From IMG/VR virus record IMGVR_UViG_3300018065_000015, positions 1 to 64,000 of that record: a DNA stretch of 64,000 nt, one strand, 5' to 3'. Below the pieces are notes generated by a model. It was not told the origin of the DNA. It did no database searches and was given only the letters and a program-made list of their open reading frames with translations. This DNA comes from a virus. A program made the position numbers and the translations under genes. Shown here one piece after another: positions 5,329-25,012 of the stretch; position 1 is the first letter of the stretch; each line of letters begins with the position of its first letter.

Positions 5329-6433
5329 CGGCGAAGCCTACGAAGGCGGACAGCTTTTACAACACATCTCGCGACACGTTTTTATCGTGATGCTACACGT
5401 CTCGTGGCCGCGGTTGAGCTTCAAGATCGACAACGCCAAAGTGTCGGTCCCTGCCAACGGCGGTAGCCAAGACAAGGAGAAGGAGGTTCAGGAGAAGTAC
5501 CGGACAGACCCGAAGTTCAAGTTCTGTCCTGAGGACTGGAGCAAACGCCTCGGCAACCTCGAGTACCGCGCCCGAACACGCCTCTCAAACGCATCCATCA
5601 AGTTTGCCACGCGCGGAATGGCTGTGCTACCAGTCACCCGTGCCGCTGACGTGTTCTCTGGATTCCGTACGCTCCGCGAGGAGCTGATGGGCTATCAGGA
5701 GGACTTCGTCAGCGACTACGAGCAGATCTTGGCGGATCTAAAAGATGACCTCGCAGTTGAGGTCTACGACCAAGCCTCCGGCAAGATGCCGAGTAAGCAG
5801 GAAATCGCAACGAAATTCGGGCTTACTTGGGCGATCGTGCCTGCTGGTGGCGGCAGCAACATCAACGGTGAGCAGATCGATTTGCTGCGCAGCATCCTCC
5901 GAAGGGCGCTGCCAAACGCAAACGACATACTCGCCGTCGATATCGAGGAGGCGTCGCTCATGCTCGACCAGATCGAGTCGCAGCTGACCTCGTCGGCGAT
6001 CACCGACGAAGAGGCGGCTGAGCTGATCGGCGAGGCGCGTGAGCAGATGAACAAGTTCACCGAGCAGATGCTCGAGGACATGGCTCGCGAACCGCGCCAA
6101 CTGCTGGTCGACGCGACTGATAACCTGATGGAGGCTCTCACAGATCCCAAACGCATAGTACAGAACGGCACCATCGCACAGGTCGAGCGCGCCTTCGAAA
6201 TGGTCGAAGGCTTCTCATTCCTGGCCGGCGATGAGCTGCTCGCTGAAATCAAGCGAGTGCGTTCGCGGCTGAACGAGCACGAAGTCAAACAGCTGAACTC
6301 GGATGCCGAGATCGGGGCCAAGCTGGCCGCCGGTTTGCAAGGCGTGCGAGACGAGGCTGCCAATGCGCGGTCCGCTGCGACCGCCGTACGGCAGTTCCGC
6401 GGAATCCGTTTCCGGGAAACCGCTGACACGTAA
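5318..6433 (+). CDS. Helical protein, DUF3150-like arrangement, 371 aa
   Basis: ATG at 5318, overlapping the previous stop, with AAGGAAG upstream. The body is long and helical, with an acidic heptad-like stretch around residues 195-340. It may be a DUF3150-type protein, a family often found next to phage and bacterial AAA+ ATPases; this rests on the N-terminal pattern and context only. It ends in FRGIRFRETADT, a clear instance of the window's shared C-terminal tag. A strong inverted repeat follows. Confidence 0.8.
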   Translation: MPTDGEAYEGGQLLQHISRHVFIVMLHVSWPRLSFKIDNAKVSVPANGGSQDKEKEVQEKYRTDPKFKFCPEDWSKRLGNLEYRARTRLSNASIKFATRGMAVLPVTRAADVFSGFRTLREELMGYQEDFVSDYEQILADLKDDLAVEVYDQASGKMPSKQEIATKFGLTWAIVPAGGGSNINGEQIDLLRSILRRALPNANDILAVDIEEASLMLDQIESQLTSSAITDEEAAELIGEAREQMNKFTEQMLEDMAREPRQLLVDATDNLMEALTDPKRIVQNGTIAQVERAFEMVEGFSFLAGDELLAEIKRVRSRLNEHEVKQLNSDAEIGAKLAAGLQGVRDEAANARSAATAVRQFRGIRFRETADT

Positions 6434-22204: not shown

Positions 22205-23075
22205 CGTCGTTTGCGGCACGTCCGCATGCAACGCCGGCTGCCCGTTCTGCGTGAGCAAGATGACCACGCAGGCAGAAACCGTAAAGAGGCCAAACTGGAG
22301 GCGATGTGAGGTCGCCTGCGAATTGGCAAAGCGCAGCGGCGTGACCACTGCGCTGATTACCGGTAAAGGCGAGCCCACACTCGTCCCCAAAGAGATTTCC
22401 GCCTACGTCCGCCGCCTCGCCGTGCACTTCCCGTTGATCGAACTGCAGACCAACGGGATTATGCTGGCACACGAGAAGGACGACAGATGGATAAACGAGT
22501 GGGCGTGCTCCGGCATGACGCTCATCTGTGTCTCGGTGGTACATCACGAGAAACTGATCAACAGCGACATGATGGGCTACAAAGGCAAGGAGTTCGAGCT
22601 GTCGACGCTGATCGAGCGCATCCACAAAGCCGGTATGTCCGTGCGGATCAACTGCACGGCCATGAAAGGCGGCGTTGAGACGTCCGACCACATCCACGAC
22701 ATGATCGACTTCTGCGCCTGCTTCGATGTCGAGCAGTTCACTATCCGCGAGGTCACTGCGCCGGACGCTGACGAACGCGTCGCACATCCCGGCGTCGCCA
22801 AATGGGTCCACGAGCATCAGCTCAACCAAAAGGACAGTGACGGCGCTAAGATCGCCGGCGATCTGGCCATCCAGCGCGCAGTCGAGGAGCTGGGTGGGCA
22901 GAAACTGCTGGCACTTCCACATGGCGCAATGGTCTACGATGTCGGAGGCCAGAACGTCTGCACGAACAATTGCTTGACGGATACGCTCAATCCAGAAGAG
23001 ATCCGCCAGCTCATTTACTTCCGGGACGGCCATTTGAGGTACGACTGGAAGTATCCCGGTGCTATCATCATCTAG
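22185..23075 (+). CDS. Radical SAM enzyme, 296 aa
   Basis: CNAGCPFC near residues 15-22 is the CxxxCxxC motif that binds the 4Fe-4S cluster. GKGEPTL (near 63) is the SAM-contacting GGEP-type motif, and further beta-alpha repeats (LQTNGIML, VRINCTA) fit the TIM-barrel core. Three further Cys near the C terminus might hold an auxiliary cluster. The substrate is unknown. It overlaps the Tat-exported protein gene, which could be its target or simply a neighbour. Confidence 0.85.
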   Translation: MKFGTLSVVCGTSACNAGCPFCVSKMTTQAETVKRPNWRRCEVACELAKRSGVTTALITGKGEPTLVPKEISAYVRRLAVHFPLIELQTNGIMLAHEKDDRWINEWACSGMTLICVSVVHHEKLINSDMMGYKGKEFELSTLIERIHKAGMSVRINCTAMKGGVETSDHIHDMIDFCACFDVEQFTIREVTAPDADERVAHPGVAKWVHEHQLNQKDSDGAKIAGDLAIQRAVEELGGQKLLALPHGAMVYDVGGQNVCTNNCLTDTLNPEEIRQLIYFRDGHLRYDWKYPGAIII

Positions 23076-23084
23076 GAGACTAAG

Positions 23085-23186
23085 ATGAAGGAACACCACC
23101 AGCTTGCGGCAGTATTAATAGGCACGCTGCTTATCCCGGCGCTGCTGGTACTGACGTATGCTATCCTTTATGCCTATGGGGATTGA
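23085..23186 (+). CDS. Very small membrane protein, 33 aa
   Basis: AGGAG lies before the ATG. One membrane helix covers most of the peptide (residues 8-30). Confidence 0.55.
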   Translation: MKEHHQLAAVLIGTLLIPALLVLTYAILYAYGD

Positions 23187-23188
23187 CC

Positions 23189-23416
23189 ATGGGAAACCGA
23201 CGACGCAAAACCGGCGGCAAACGCCGGAAAAGTGTACGTTGCACCCTGTGCACCGACGTTCGGTGGCTGGGCAACGCCTCGGGTAGATTCAAACGCAAAG
23301 ACGAACTCGAGATGCGCGACCGAGGGCGCTTGGAGGAGTTCGAGAAGGAGAAAGACGATGGCCAAACTACTGGGCCAGGGGGTGAACACCCTCAAGAAGA
23401 TGAAGAACGACTGTGA
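23189..23416 (+). CDS. Small basic protein with CxxC, 75 aa
   Basis: A basic start (GNRRRKTGGKRRKS) is followed by CTLC, then a charged helix. The last 59 bases overlap the next gene in another frame. Weak GGGGA ribosome site. Confidence 0.55.
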   Translation: MGNRRRKTGGKRRKSVRCTLCTDVRWLGNASGRFKRKDELEMRDRGRLEEFEKEKDDGQTTGPGGEHPQEDEERL

Positions 23417-24143
23417 AAAAGTCGTGACCAAGCAGTACCAGTTGCTGCAGGTCTCGCAGTCCTTCGGTGGGTATGACAAGTCGTACACGCCGCTGGACGA
23501 AGACGGTCGTCAGCTGCCCAGCGAGGGGCAGACGATCAAGCAGGACCCGCGCGATCTCGTCGCCCGCGTCGAGAAAGAGTGGACCGCACTTTTCGACATG
23601 ATGGCGGGCTGCGACAAGACGAACTGCACGGCCGCAGCGGACATCGTGGTCCGCGACGAAGCCGGCGACCCGTTCGTCATCGCCGAGCGCGTGCCCGTCA
23701 CGACGCTGATGCCGCTGCAGAAGAAAGCAGACGACATCCTCACACTCATCCGCCACATCCCGACGCTCTCGATGAGCCGTACGTGGACGTGGGACGACAA
23801 CGCAAACTGCTACGTGTCGGATGAGGAGTTCACGGACAAGACCGAAAAGGTGCACCGCCACCAGATCGTCGTCGAGCCCACCGAATTCCACCCGGCGCAG
23901 ACGCATACGTACACCGAGGACCGCCCGATCGGTACCTGGCGAACGGTTTGGACCACGTCCTGCCGTCCGGCAGCCGAAGTGGCGGCCATGGAGGCGCGCG
24001 CCATTGCATTCAAATACGCAATCGGCGAAGCTGTGCAGAAGGCCAACACGGCCGAAATGCAAGAGAGAAAGATCGCCAAGCCGATCTTTGATTGGATCCT
24101 TCGGGGAGTGAAGCCTGCAGCCCAACAGCCCAGCGAGGCATAG
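23358..24143 (+). CDS. Unknown protein, 261 aa
   Basis: ATG at 23358 chosen for AAGGAGA upstream. The N-terminal part is helical, then a beta-rich stretch with many Trp and Thr (TWTWDD, GTWRTVWTT), then a C-terminal helix. No signal peptide. No family recognised. It is the last gene before the second RNA island. Confidence 0.78.
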   Translation: MAKLLGQGVNTLKKMKNDCEKVVTKQYQLLQVSQSFGGYDKSYTPLDEDGRQLPSEGQTIKQDPRDLVARVEKEWTALFDMMAGCDKTNCTAAADIVVRDEAGDPFVIAERVPVTTLMPLQKKADDILTLIRHIPTLSMSRTWTWDDNANCYVSDEEFTDKTEKVHRHQIVVEPTEFHPAQTHTYTEDRPIGTWRTVWTTSCRPAAEVAAMEARAIAFKYAIGEAVQKANTAEMQERKIAKPIFDWILRGVKPAAQQPSEA

Positions 24144-24185
24144 GCGCAGGCATAACAGAGCTTTAGAGTCAGGTTTAGATTTATG

Positions 24186-24285
24186 TTAGAGGGACCCGTG
24201 CGCTCTGCGCACTTTTAGGTTCGAGTCCTGACGCGGGCACTTTTTCGACTGTCCGTGTGGCGAAATTGGAAAACGCAGGTCCCCT
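24186..24285 (+). tRNA. Circularly permuted tRNA-Leu candidate (3' half before 5' half)
   Basis: The 3' half (about 24186-24239) has anticodon-loop sequence TTAGAG, stem GGACC, a class II variable arm GTGCGC-TCT-GCGCAC, T arm TTAGG/CCTGA with TTCGAGT, acceptor CGCGGGC and A73. After an 11-base linker the 5' half (24251-24285) gives acceptor GTCCGTG, T8, D arm GCG-AAATTGGAAAA-CGC, and stem GGTCC. Acceptor pairing is 7 of 7 (two G-T) and anticodon stem 5 of 5. A73, the class II arm and TAG in the loop all fit Leu; the exact join (TAG or TTA) is uncertain. Flanks 24158-24170 and 24293-24306 can pair. Confidence 0.72.
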
Positions 24286-24359
24286 CCCAGCAGACTTCGA
24301 CAGCTTACTCCTAGGCTCACATAGGTTTGTCATGATGTGCAATCAATCGCTACGAGAAA

Positions 24360-24458
24360 CCCATTTTGAATATACGGGTTAGATTCCCGTCCCGGCCTCC
24401 TTATTGTCCACACGCTACCCATAAGGGCCGGGTCGTATAATGTTAATACGTTCAACAT
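24360..24458 (+). tRNA. Circularly permuted tRNA candidate, probably Gly (CCC)
   Basis: 3' half first (24360-24398): CCCATT, stem TTGAA, T arm ACGGG/CCCGT with loop TTAGATT, acceptor CCCGGCC, T73. The 5' half (24426-24458) follows after 27 bases: acceptor GGCCGGG (7 of 7 Watson-Crick), T8, D stem GTAT/ATAC, stem TTCAA. U73 and the D-arm sequence suggest Gly. The D loop lacks one of the two G residues and the T loop lacks C56. Just outside the halves GCTACGAG (24349-24356) pairs with CTCGTGGC (24471-24478). Confidence 0.68.
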
Positions 24459-24478
24459 ACTCAGACTAACCTCGTGGC

Positions 24479-24565
24479 TTAAACGGTGGACAGTGCATAT
24501 CTGCGTTTACGCTAAACCGAACCCAGGGCCCCCCCTGTCAGGACAATATGGGTTAGGGGCCCGCC
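24479..24565 (+). ncRNA. Possible pseudoknot region
   Basis: AACCCA (near 24520) can pair with TGGGTT (near 24549) while GGGCCCC right after the first pairs with GGGGCCC right after the second, an H-type pseudoknot pattern. No gene present. Confidence 0.3.
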
Positions 24566-24638
24566 AGTGCCGAGTCAATAGTCGACAGCCGTGGCTTCAC
24601 AGCCTTGCGGTAGCCCGGTGCGATCCCGGGTCGGCGCT
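24566..24638 (+). other. tRNA-like element E
   Basis: AGTGCCGA pairs with TCGGCGCT (8 pairs) and a T arm CCCGG-TGCGATC-CCGGG is present. Overall length is normal for a tRNA, but the D loop lacks GG and no 7-base anticodon loop forms; GGCT-TCAC-AGCC occupies that place. A decayed or non-decoding tRNA. Confidence 0.4.
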
Positions 24639-24658
24639 CTCATAGAAAGGAGGACGAC

Positions 24659-25012
24659 ATGTCCGAAGAACTCGATACCAGTACCGACATCTCGCCGTCC
24701 GACGACGGATCGGAACTGAACGTACACATCGACCTCACGCCGAAAAACGACAAGTCGGAGACGTTGGTGTGCAACTGGTGTGCTGAGCCGCACGCCGTCG
24801 ACGCTGATTACAAGGAAGCGATGCTCGAACGTGGCGAAGAGCAGCTTATGGTGCTCCGCCAGCAGTATCCCGACAAAGCCGAGGTGCACGAGCTCGAGCC
24901 CGACCAGACATGGACATGCGGCAGGTGCTTGCTATTCCTGTGCGGGCATTCGCCCGATTCCATGCGAACCGACTGCCACGATCACGCAGTCCCAGAAGAG
25001 AGACAAACGTGA
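24659..25012 (+). CDS. Small zinc-binding protein, 117 aa
   Basis: Very strong AAAGGAGG site. An acidic N terminus is followed by CNWC and CGRC pairs spaced about 55 residues apart, a likely zinc ribbon, and a His/Cys-rich tail. Overlaps the next gene by ATGA. Confidence 0.75.
   Translation: MSEELDTSTDISPSDDGSELNVHIDLTPKNDKSETLVCNWCAEPHAVDADYKEAMLERGEEQLMVLRQQYPDKAEVHELEPDQTWTCGRCLLFLCGHSPDSMRTDCHDHAVPEERQT

What the first reader, a model, noticed from the sequence alone, without database searches (positions are those of the whole stretch)
24158..24306. tRNA-Leu gene in circularly permuted order
The 3' half (anticodon stem GGACC, class II variable arm, T arm, acceptor, A73) lies upstream of the 5' half (acceptor, T8, D arm, stem GGTCC). 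Acceptor pairing is 7 of 7 and the anticodon stem 5 of 5. All Leu features are present, yet neither half makes sense alone. The flanks form an imperfect helix of about 12 pairs (24158-24170 with 24293-24306) that would bring the two ends together. Permuted tRNA genes are established in some algae and archaea; I know of no clear phage example. Making a working tRNA would need ligation or splicing at the anticodon loop.
Basis: partly seen in the sequence, partly recalled or inferred. Interest (0 to 1): 0.93.

Follow-up and report, generated by a model that had tools for sequence, protein, structure and literature searches.

The report
Paired tRNA-mimic RNAs beside DUF7873
What looks like a scrambled tRNA gene in this phage is one of two neighbouring small RNAs that imitate the shape of a tRNA; the same pair sits behind the same uncharacterised protein gene in many phages and bacteria and resembles known bacterial "Y RNAs", but often without the Ro60 protein that Y RNAs bind.

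Summary
In detail: a 3' tRNA half lies upstream of its matching 5' half at 24192-24282 (acceptor 7/7, anticodon-like stem 5/5), above shuffles. The reading as a permuted tRNA-Leu gene needing ligation is not supported. A second permuted unit follows at 24366-24455. Both lie directly behind a DUF7873 gene (23358-24143). The arrangement recurs: 75 of 80 viral DUF7873 loci have at least one such unit downstream (53 two). A covariance model built without the window scores unit 2 at 82.2 bits (E 6.5e-17) and matches 75 of 80 bacterial DUF7873 loci full length. The anticodon-like stem continues into covarying basal helices. No anticodon loop is conserved: U33 is at most 28% in 118 units, against 339 of 357 ordinary tRNAs. 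This is the plan of bacterial Y RNA; Rfam's YrlA model itself runs T arm, looped acceptor stem, D arm on a long stem. YrlA matches are sub-threshold (25.7-33.3 bits, cut-off 69) and absent in the window. Ro60/TROVE was not found in 18 of 20 phage records (some may be fragments) or 12 of 20 bacterial genomes, so DUF7873 is the likely partner (inferred). Best reading: a Y-RNA-like tRNA-mimic pair linked to DUF7873, permuted by design, not spliced.

The parts
23358..24143 (+). DUF7873 protein gene (PF25283), directly upstream of the RNAs (the ORF as listed starts at GTG 23232)
   Evidence: Pfam 204 bits, cut-off 27; ORF; AlphaFold mean pLDDT 93.4
24158..24318 (+). RNA 1: Y-RNA-like permuted tRNA mimic with basal helix
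   Evidence: model R2 (window, L022, G006 not in its alignment): match over all model positions at 24163-24328, 40.4 bits, E 1.2e-5 (head-only matches elsewhere in that search reach 36.0 bits); MFE fold gives basal stem plus tRNA-like junction, z -2.36
24158..24168 (+). RNA 1 basal helix, 5' strand (pairs with 24308-24318, 9 of 11 by eye)
   Evidence: positions; MFE
24192..24196 (+). RNA 1 anticodon-like stem, 3' strand GGACC
24197..24214 (+). RNA 1 long variable-arm-like hairpin
24215..24231 (+). RNA 1 T arm (TTCGAGT loop)
24232..24238 (+). RNA 1 acceptor-like stem, 3' strand; followed by A and an 11-nt closing loop
24251..24257 (+). RNA 1 acceptor-like stem, 5' strand
24258..24277 (+). RNA 1 D arm with GG in the loop
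24278..24282 (+). RNA 1 anticodon-like stem, 5' strand GGTCC
24308..24318 (+). RNA 1 basal helix, 3' strand, in the place of the conserved CTCCAG..TCAGC stretch of relatives
24334..24501 (+). RNA 2: second Y-RNA-like permuted tRNA mimic
   Evidence: model R1 (window not in its alignment): 24331-24493, 82.2 bits, E 6.5e-17; outer ends from MFE
24334..24341 (+). RNA 2 helix P1, 5' strand (MFE pairs it with 24494-24501; the R1 alignment uses a nearby register with one non-standard pair)
24350..24356 (+). RNA 2 helix P2, 5' strand CTACGAG (pairs with 24471-24477)
24366..24397 (+). RNA 2 anticodon-like 3' strand, T arm (degenerate TTAGATT loop) and acceptor 3' strand CCCGGCC
24426..24455 (+). RNA 2 acceptor 5' strand GGCCGGG, D arm (loop lacks GG), anticodon-like 5' strand
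24479..24485 (+). RNA 2 conserved TTAAACG basal motif

Best explanation
The element is one of two tandem noncoding RNAs that fold as circularly permuted tRNA mimics: T arm, acceptor-like stem closed by a loop, then D arm. The anticodon-like stem is not closed by an anticodon loop; it opens into a long basal stem made from the RNA's two ends. This is the plan of bacterial Y RNA. Shown by computation: structure, covariation, position behind DUF7873, wide distribution, no conserved decoding loop. Inferred: the RNAs are expressed, from or beside the DUF7873 3' UTR; the basal stem with its conserved internal loops (AUCGA / UUAAACG in RNA 2) binds a protein, most likely DUF7873 in place of Ro60; the tRNA-like head recruits or decoys a tRNA-binding enzyme (PNPase in the known Y RNP; tRNA-modifying or tRNA-cutting enzymes). 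No splicing or ligation is needed. In this phage RNA 2 has lost some tRNA hallmarks (T loop TTAGATT, no GG in the D loop), so its mimicry may be weakened.
For: Units in 75 of 80 viral DUF7873 loci, searched from 60 bases before to 1.1 kb after the gene's end (two in 53; second hits in L086 and L101 may be tRNA-array artefacts); the same stretches on the opposite strand give 1 hit in all, block shuffles 0. R1 full length in 73 of 80 viral loci, 37 of them among the 44 not used in training, some near-duplicates of training loci; in 75 of 80 bacterial loci; window 82.2, L022 66.6, G006 52.5 bits, none of them in training. Basal helices P1 and P2, which the scanner did not select for, are 86.1% and 89.9% paired with two-sided changes at all 12 pairs. 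U33 at most 28% of 118 units against 339 of 357 ordinary tRNAs. YrlA's model aligns in register in 7 of 13 relatives' loci scanned, below its cut-off. RNAs beside six bacterial TROVE genes share the head. Published description of YrlA: passages of PMC8394870.
Against: YrlA matches lie far below Rfam's cut-off (E 0.0016-0.25), 6 of the 13 loci scanned have none, and the window has none up to E 10. No expression or binding data. DUF7873 as partner rests on adjacency alone; its model has no clear relative among solved structures. NCCA follows the acceptor-like stem in 46 of 118 units, which a pure mimic would not need and which could mean end processing; the window's units lack it. R2, the unit 1 model, has base pairs only in the head, so unit 1's basal helix is not backed by a covariation count, and the window's 40.4 bits stand only a little above head-only matches at 32-36 bits. 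In L219 a Ro60-side RNA carries TTAAACGCCGG right after its anticodon-like stem, so that motif may not be specific to DUF7873. The MFE of unit 2 is unremarkable against shuffles (z -1.35).
Confidence: 0.76

Rival explanations
1. True permuted tRNA genes: the transcript is circularised at the anticodon loop (splicing, ligation or a permuted group I intron) and cut in the linker to give a decoding tRNA.
For: Acceptor 7/7 in 112 of 118 units, though the scanner required at least 6; in the window a join after C32 would give the loop CTTAGAG with a Leu UAG anticodon (sequence); NCCA in 46 of 118 linkers.
Against: No conserved anticodon loop in the family; helices beyond the anticodon stem covary; no Rfam match of any kind up to E 10 in 23900-24900; no RtcB or PF09414 RNA ligase in 6 phage records; bacteria lack the archaeal-type tRNA endonuclease (recalled).
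Confidence: 0.06
2. Processed two-piece RNA: RNase P and 3' processing open the acceptor loop, leaving two base-paired RNAs with a free CCA end, as in permuted tmRNA.
For: G1-C72 in 94 of 118 units and NCCA in 46 of 118; sub-threshold beta_tmRNA match, 23.9 bits with cut-off 84, over a unit in L061.
Against: 72 of 118 units, the window's two included, lack NCCA; many closing loops are only 5-9 nt; the YrlA model keeps this loop.
Confidence: 0.11
3. Chance or decay: leftovers of tandem ordinary tRNA genes whose outer halves were lost.
For: Tandem tRNAs give the same half order (L003/L022); the window's unit 2 is degenerate; model heads also match tandem tRNA arrays (L047 41.2 bits; up to 36.0 bits).
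Against: 35 of the 80 viral loci have no ARAGORN tRNA at all; conserved flanks and position behind DUF7873 in phages and bacteria.
Confidence: 0.03

Closest known systems
Bacterial Y RNA, YrlA (Rfam RF02553)
   Same: T arm, looped acceptor-like stem, D arm in permuted order on a long stem of the two ends with internal loops (consensus; described in passages of PMC8394870); a yrlB-yrlA pair is named in the Salmonella rsr-yrlBA-rtcBA operon (passages of PMC7790460).
   Different: 25.7-33.3 bits against a cut-off of 69; beside DUF7873, not shown beside rsr/Ro60; different basal motifs; often no Ro60 found in the genome.
RNAs beside Ro60/TROVE genes in bacterial genomes
   Same: Same tRNA-like head near each of six TROVE loci fetched.
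   Different: Five of the six match only head positions of R1; the sixth (L221) matches all positions but weakly, 23.8 bits.
Permuted tRNA genes of algae and archaea (from general knowledge)
   Same: Half order and acceptor/anticodon stem complementarity.
   Different: No conserved anticodon loop; basal helices conserved in type 2 units.
Permuted (two-piece) tmRNA (from general knowledge)
   Same: 3' acceptor strand precedes the 5' strand around a loop.
   Different: D stem present; G3-U70 in 0 of 55 type 2 and 2 of 63 other units; a tag reading frame was not looked for.

Membership tests
Bacterial Y RNA / YrlA (RF02553) | Permuted tRNA-like module: T arm, looped acceptor-like stem, D arm | tested here: met
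Bacterial Y RNA / YrlA (RF02553) | Basal stem formed by 5' and 3' ends with internal loops | tested here: met
   P1 and P2 of type 2 units covary; both window units fold with a basal stem; for unit 1 no covariation count was made
Bacterial Y RNA / YrlA (RF02553) | Rfam gathering score 69 bits | tested here: not met
   none in the window up to E 10; 25.7-33.3 bits in 7 of 13 relatives' loci scanned
Bacterial Y RNA / YrlA (RF02553) | Encoded near a Ro60/TROVE gene | tested here: not met
   TROVE not found in G001 (the window's phage) and 18 of 20 phage records in all, which may be fragments, nor in 12 of 20 bacterial genomes; in G006 it lies about 24 kb away
Bacterial Y RNA / YrlA (RF02553) | Binds Ro60 and tethers PNPase | not testable with these tools
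   needs binding experiments
Permuted tRNA gene | Acceptor, D, T and anticodon stems formed by the rejoined halves | tested here: met
   in the family anticodon-like stem 5/5 in 71 of 118
Permuted tRNA gene | Functional anticodon loop after joining (U33, R37) | tested here: not met
   family U33 at most 28% against 339 of 357 control tRNAs; the window's unit 1 alone would have U33 and A37 if joined after C32
Permuted tRNA gene | Circular or joined RNA in cells | not testable with these tools
   no RNA data
Permuted group I intron-exon | Group I core split around the exons | tested here: inconclusive
   no Rfam match up to E 10 in 23900-24900, but a split core could escape the model

The most novel reading that the evidence does not exclude
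DUF7873 and its two permuted tRNA-mimic RNAs form a Ro60-independent Y-type ribonucleoprotein, widespread in Actinomycetota, Chloroflexota, Myxococcota and large phages. DUF7873 would be an unrelated protein that has taken Ro60's place on the basal stem, and the paired tRNA heads would bind a tRNA enzyme or act as decoys for tRNA-cutting defences.
Probability: 0.5. Interest if true: 0.82.

Novelty: new variant of a known kind. Interest (0 to 1): 0.7.

Why it matters
ARAGORN and Rfam at its cut-offs miss these RNAs in the sequences tested, although 75 of 80 viral DUF7873 loci carry at least one unit and 75 of 80 bacterial ones a full-length model match. If DUF7873 binds them, tRNA-mimic tethering would exist outside the Ro60 system, giving Y RNA biology a second protein partner and giving an uncharacterised protein family a testable function. 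It also corrects a tempting claim of a spliced, permuted tRNA in a phage.

Tried and rejected
Permuted group I intron: a P7-like CAGACTA was suspected by eye; no Rfam support, and the motif proved to lie in the internal loop of the basal stem. Archaeal host with BHB splicing: set aside because the phage has NAD-type DNA ligase-like and sigma-like ORFs (by eye and recall) and a terminase whose listed matches are in phages of bacteria (all under 60% identity). RtcB and PF09414 RNA ligase: 0 of 6 records each; other ligase families not tested. DUF7873 by fold: Foldseek best E 0.033; VIA-align best Z 8.2 to TolC at rmsd 11.6, within the level the tool calls common; no Ro60 chain is among the rows shown, which excludes nothing; PDB by sequence best E 0.22. 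DUF7873 in PHROGs, NCBIfam, PADLOC: none. Promoter scan of 23000-24800: 0 found, 0.7 expected. The pattern CAGACTAAN{4,9}GGCTTAAACGG found only records of the window's phage and L022's record in viral contigs.

Papers: ten searches. 'DUF7873' is in no held paper. 'Y RNA', 'tRNA-like', 'Streptomyces' and 'noncoding RNA' together are in none. Papers seen only as passages: PMC7824862, PMC7790460, PMC12282133, PMC8394870, PMC7765460, PMC8058203; the rest only as search listings. Chen 2014 and Sim 2020 on bacterial Y RNAs are not held, so they may already mention such units; passages say that Y RNAs were reported in mycobacteriophages and the YrlA module in several phages.

Selection effects: A2 (36 rows of 37 candidates; L092 dropped as similar to L079) was picked by a scanner that requires T, acceptor and D pairing and by a TTAAA in the 3' flank, so those helices and that motif are not independent evidence; P1, P2 and AUCGA are. 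'Type 2' means TTAAA in the 3' flank (55 of 118 units); the other 63 may include some type 2 units without it. A4 rows (43) were chosen by hand. A3 used 48 of 63 first-listed proteins (L063 has an in-frame stop; 14 others left out for size). In one search repeats with identical arms were removed, leaving 118 units, the window's two included. In one search hits overlapped by two ARAGORN tRNAs were left out of the count, not so in the controls.

Changes on rechecking: unit 1's weaker model support and the 6 of 13 loci without a YrlA match are now told; confidence of the best explanation went from 0.78 to 0.76 and of the two-piece rival from 0.10 to 0.11.

Full report
What was checked. ARAGORN and Rfam find four ordinary tRNAs in the window (15490, 16430, 17822, 18602) and nothing at this place. 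A pattern scanner for "3' half then 5' half" finds one unit on both strands of the 64 kb, and one lower-scoring hit in 20 shuffles of one strand. A scored version finds 45.5 for the reported unit and 40.1 for a second, unreported permuted unit at 24366-24455; other window hits score 30.2 or less and the best hit in 10 shuffles 33.6. The pattern alone can mislead: two tandem ordinary tRNA-Leu genes in L003/L022 score 44.6.

Relatives. The window is a tailed bacteriophage (terminase PHROG 675; terminase matches in Vibrio, Salmonella, Bacillus and other phages). Three other records carry the region unchanged. Two divergent relatives, L022 and G006 (L032), have the same two units at the same place behind a homologous protein, with different stem sequences; in G006 a complete ordinary tRNA sits in the closing loop of unit 1. 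The upstream protein is DUF7873 (PF25283; alignment). A search with it gave 80 viral loci (best of 210). Between 60 bases before and 1.1 kb after the gene's end, 75 of 80 loci have at least one permuted unit and 53 have two; five have none (L052, L053, L077, L095, L112), L077 being cut by the contig end. The opposite strand gives 1 hit in all and shuffles 0. A few second hits (L086, L101) may be tRNA-array artefacts. 35 of the 80 loci hold no ARAGORN tRNA.

Structure. An alignment of 36 type-2 units (window, L022 and G006 left out) folds into P1, an internal loop with AUCGA on one side and UUAAACG on the other, P2, a second internal loop, then the tRNA-like head. RNAalifold predicts 28 pairs, 27 with two-sided changes; it does not include the anticodon-like stem, which the alignment blurs. 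Counts give 94.2% paired cells against 58.2% in shuffles and at most 45.4% when slid; helices P1 and P2, which played no part in selecting the sequences, are 86.1% and 89.9% paired with two-sided changes at all 12 pairs. The TTAAA motif and the head helices were selection criteria and are not independent evidence. Model R1 finds the window at 24331-24493 with 82.2 bits, L022 66.6, G006 52.5 and G005 48, all over the whole model and none in its training set; unit 1 of the window matches only in the head, 26 bits. Head-only matches also arise in tandem tRNA arrays (L047, 41.2 bits), so I count only full-length matches. Of the 80 viral loci 73 match full length, 36 of them the training loci and 37 of the other 44. 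A second model for unit 1 (R2, alignment, base pairs only in the head) matches the window at 24163-24328 over all positions, 40.4 bits, E 1.2e-5, L022 at 69.5 and G006 at 30.2 bits; head-only matches elsewhere in that search reach 36.0 bits. Folding the window's RNAs alone gives both basal stems and the tRNA-like junctions (z -2.36 and -1.35, the latter unremarkable). The P1 register of RNA 2 differs slightly between MFE and model.

Not a decoding tRNA. In 118 distinct units the acceptor-like stem is 7/7 in 112, the anticodon-like stem 5/5 in 71, and GG is in the D loop in 108, with T loop consensus TTCRAnY; but for every way of joining the halves U33 is at most 28%. Ordinary tRNAs of the same 80 loci have U33 in 339 of 357 and R37 in 353. 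The Leu-like loop of the window is therefore not a family feature. NCCA follows the acceptor-like stem in 25 of 63 units without and 21 of 55 with the TTAAA flank, more than chance, so tRNA-like ends may matter in some; the window has ACTT and TCCT. No RtcB or PF09414 ligase was seen in six phage records.

What it resembles. Rfam's YrlA model (Y RNA-like) aligns over these units in register in 7 of 13 relatives' loci scanned, over the whole model in L058, L054, L174, L181, L213 (27-33 bits) and L163 (25.7), in part in L066; not in L056, L059, L061, L067, L143 or L157, nor in the window. Its cut-off is 69 bits, so this is a lead and not a classification. Its consensus is the same: T hairpin, acceptor hairpin, D hairpin, short anticodon-like stem, internal loop, helix, internal loop, basal helix. 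A review describes YrlA as a large stem from the paired ends plus a domain like the D, T and acceptor arms, the stem holding Rsr/Ro60 and the domain binding PNPase (PMC8394870, passages). Phage papers mention TROVE or Ro60-like proteins and possible Y RNAs in phages (PMC7824862; PMC12282133; PMC7765460; passages only).

Distribution and partner. R1 matches 75 of 80 full length at E 5.3e-11 or better, one more weakly (L204), two in part (L159, L209), and L160 and L177 not at E 0.01. Five phage isolates examined (GodonK, Racecar, KpLz-2_45, RHph_TM30, D505) all match, KpLz-2_45 in part; no RNA is annotated at the match in any of the five, though D505 and GodonK have small predicted genes overlapping it. 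TROVE was found in 2 of 20 phage records, not in the window's phage (161.8 kb record) nor in the IMG/VR record with GodonK's exact length (records may be fragments), and in 8 of 20 bacterial genomes. Around the six bacterial TROVE loci fetched, R1 matches an RNA each time, in five only over the head; near the two phage TROVE genes matches are weak (L131 E 0.0047, L130 E 0.43). The bacterial ones are presumably the ordinary Y RNAs, with the same head on another base. The simplest reading is that the head is common and the base is partner-specific, DUF7873 standing where Ro60 stands. Against this, one Ro60-side RNA (L219) has a TTAAACGCCGG next to its head. DUF7873's predicted structure is confident (mean pLDDT 93.4) but has no clear relative among solved structures.

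Verdict. It fails two membership features of Y RNA tested here (Rfam score, Ro60 linkage), so I call it Y-RNA-like, a new variant of a known kind, and not a Y RNA proper. No held paper names DUF7873; the main Y RNA papers could not be read.

Noticed in passing
window 24566-24638; L022 8145-8212: A third tRNA-like piece in normal order follows the pair; Rfam tRNA 32.8 bits in L022's record (G003:21540-21607), undetected and degenerate by eye in the window.
   Followed up: partly
L012 12089-12172: An 84-nt match to bacterial 23S rRNA (model positions 2129-2212; by recall near the L1 stalk) in a related phage, 58.1 bits; possibly an rRNA-domain mimic.
   Followed up: no
L022 11505-11903: Four tRNAs with Leu anticodons close together, all 74-75 nt, apparently without the long variable arm expected of tRNA-Leu.
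   Followed up: no
L049 5818-5975 (same record as L032): In phage G006 a complete ordinary tRNA gene (5862-5936) lies inside the acceptor-loop linker of permuted unit 1.
   Followed up: partly
L129, L130: TROVE/Ro60 genes in phage records G006 and G005, about 24 and 27 kb from the RNA 2 match.
   Followed up: partly
L112 6946-7088 (- strand): In this locus the RNA 2 match lies on the strand opposite to DUF7873.
   Followed up: no
L202 5248-5484: Two further permuted-unit hits beyond the usual pair in one actinobacterial genome.
   Followed up: no
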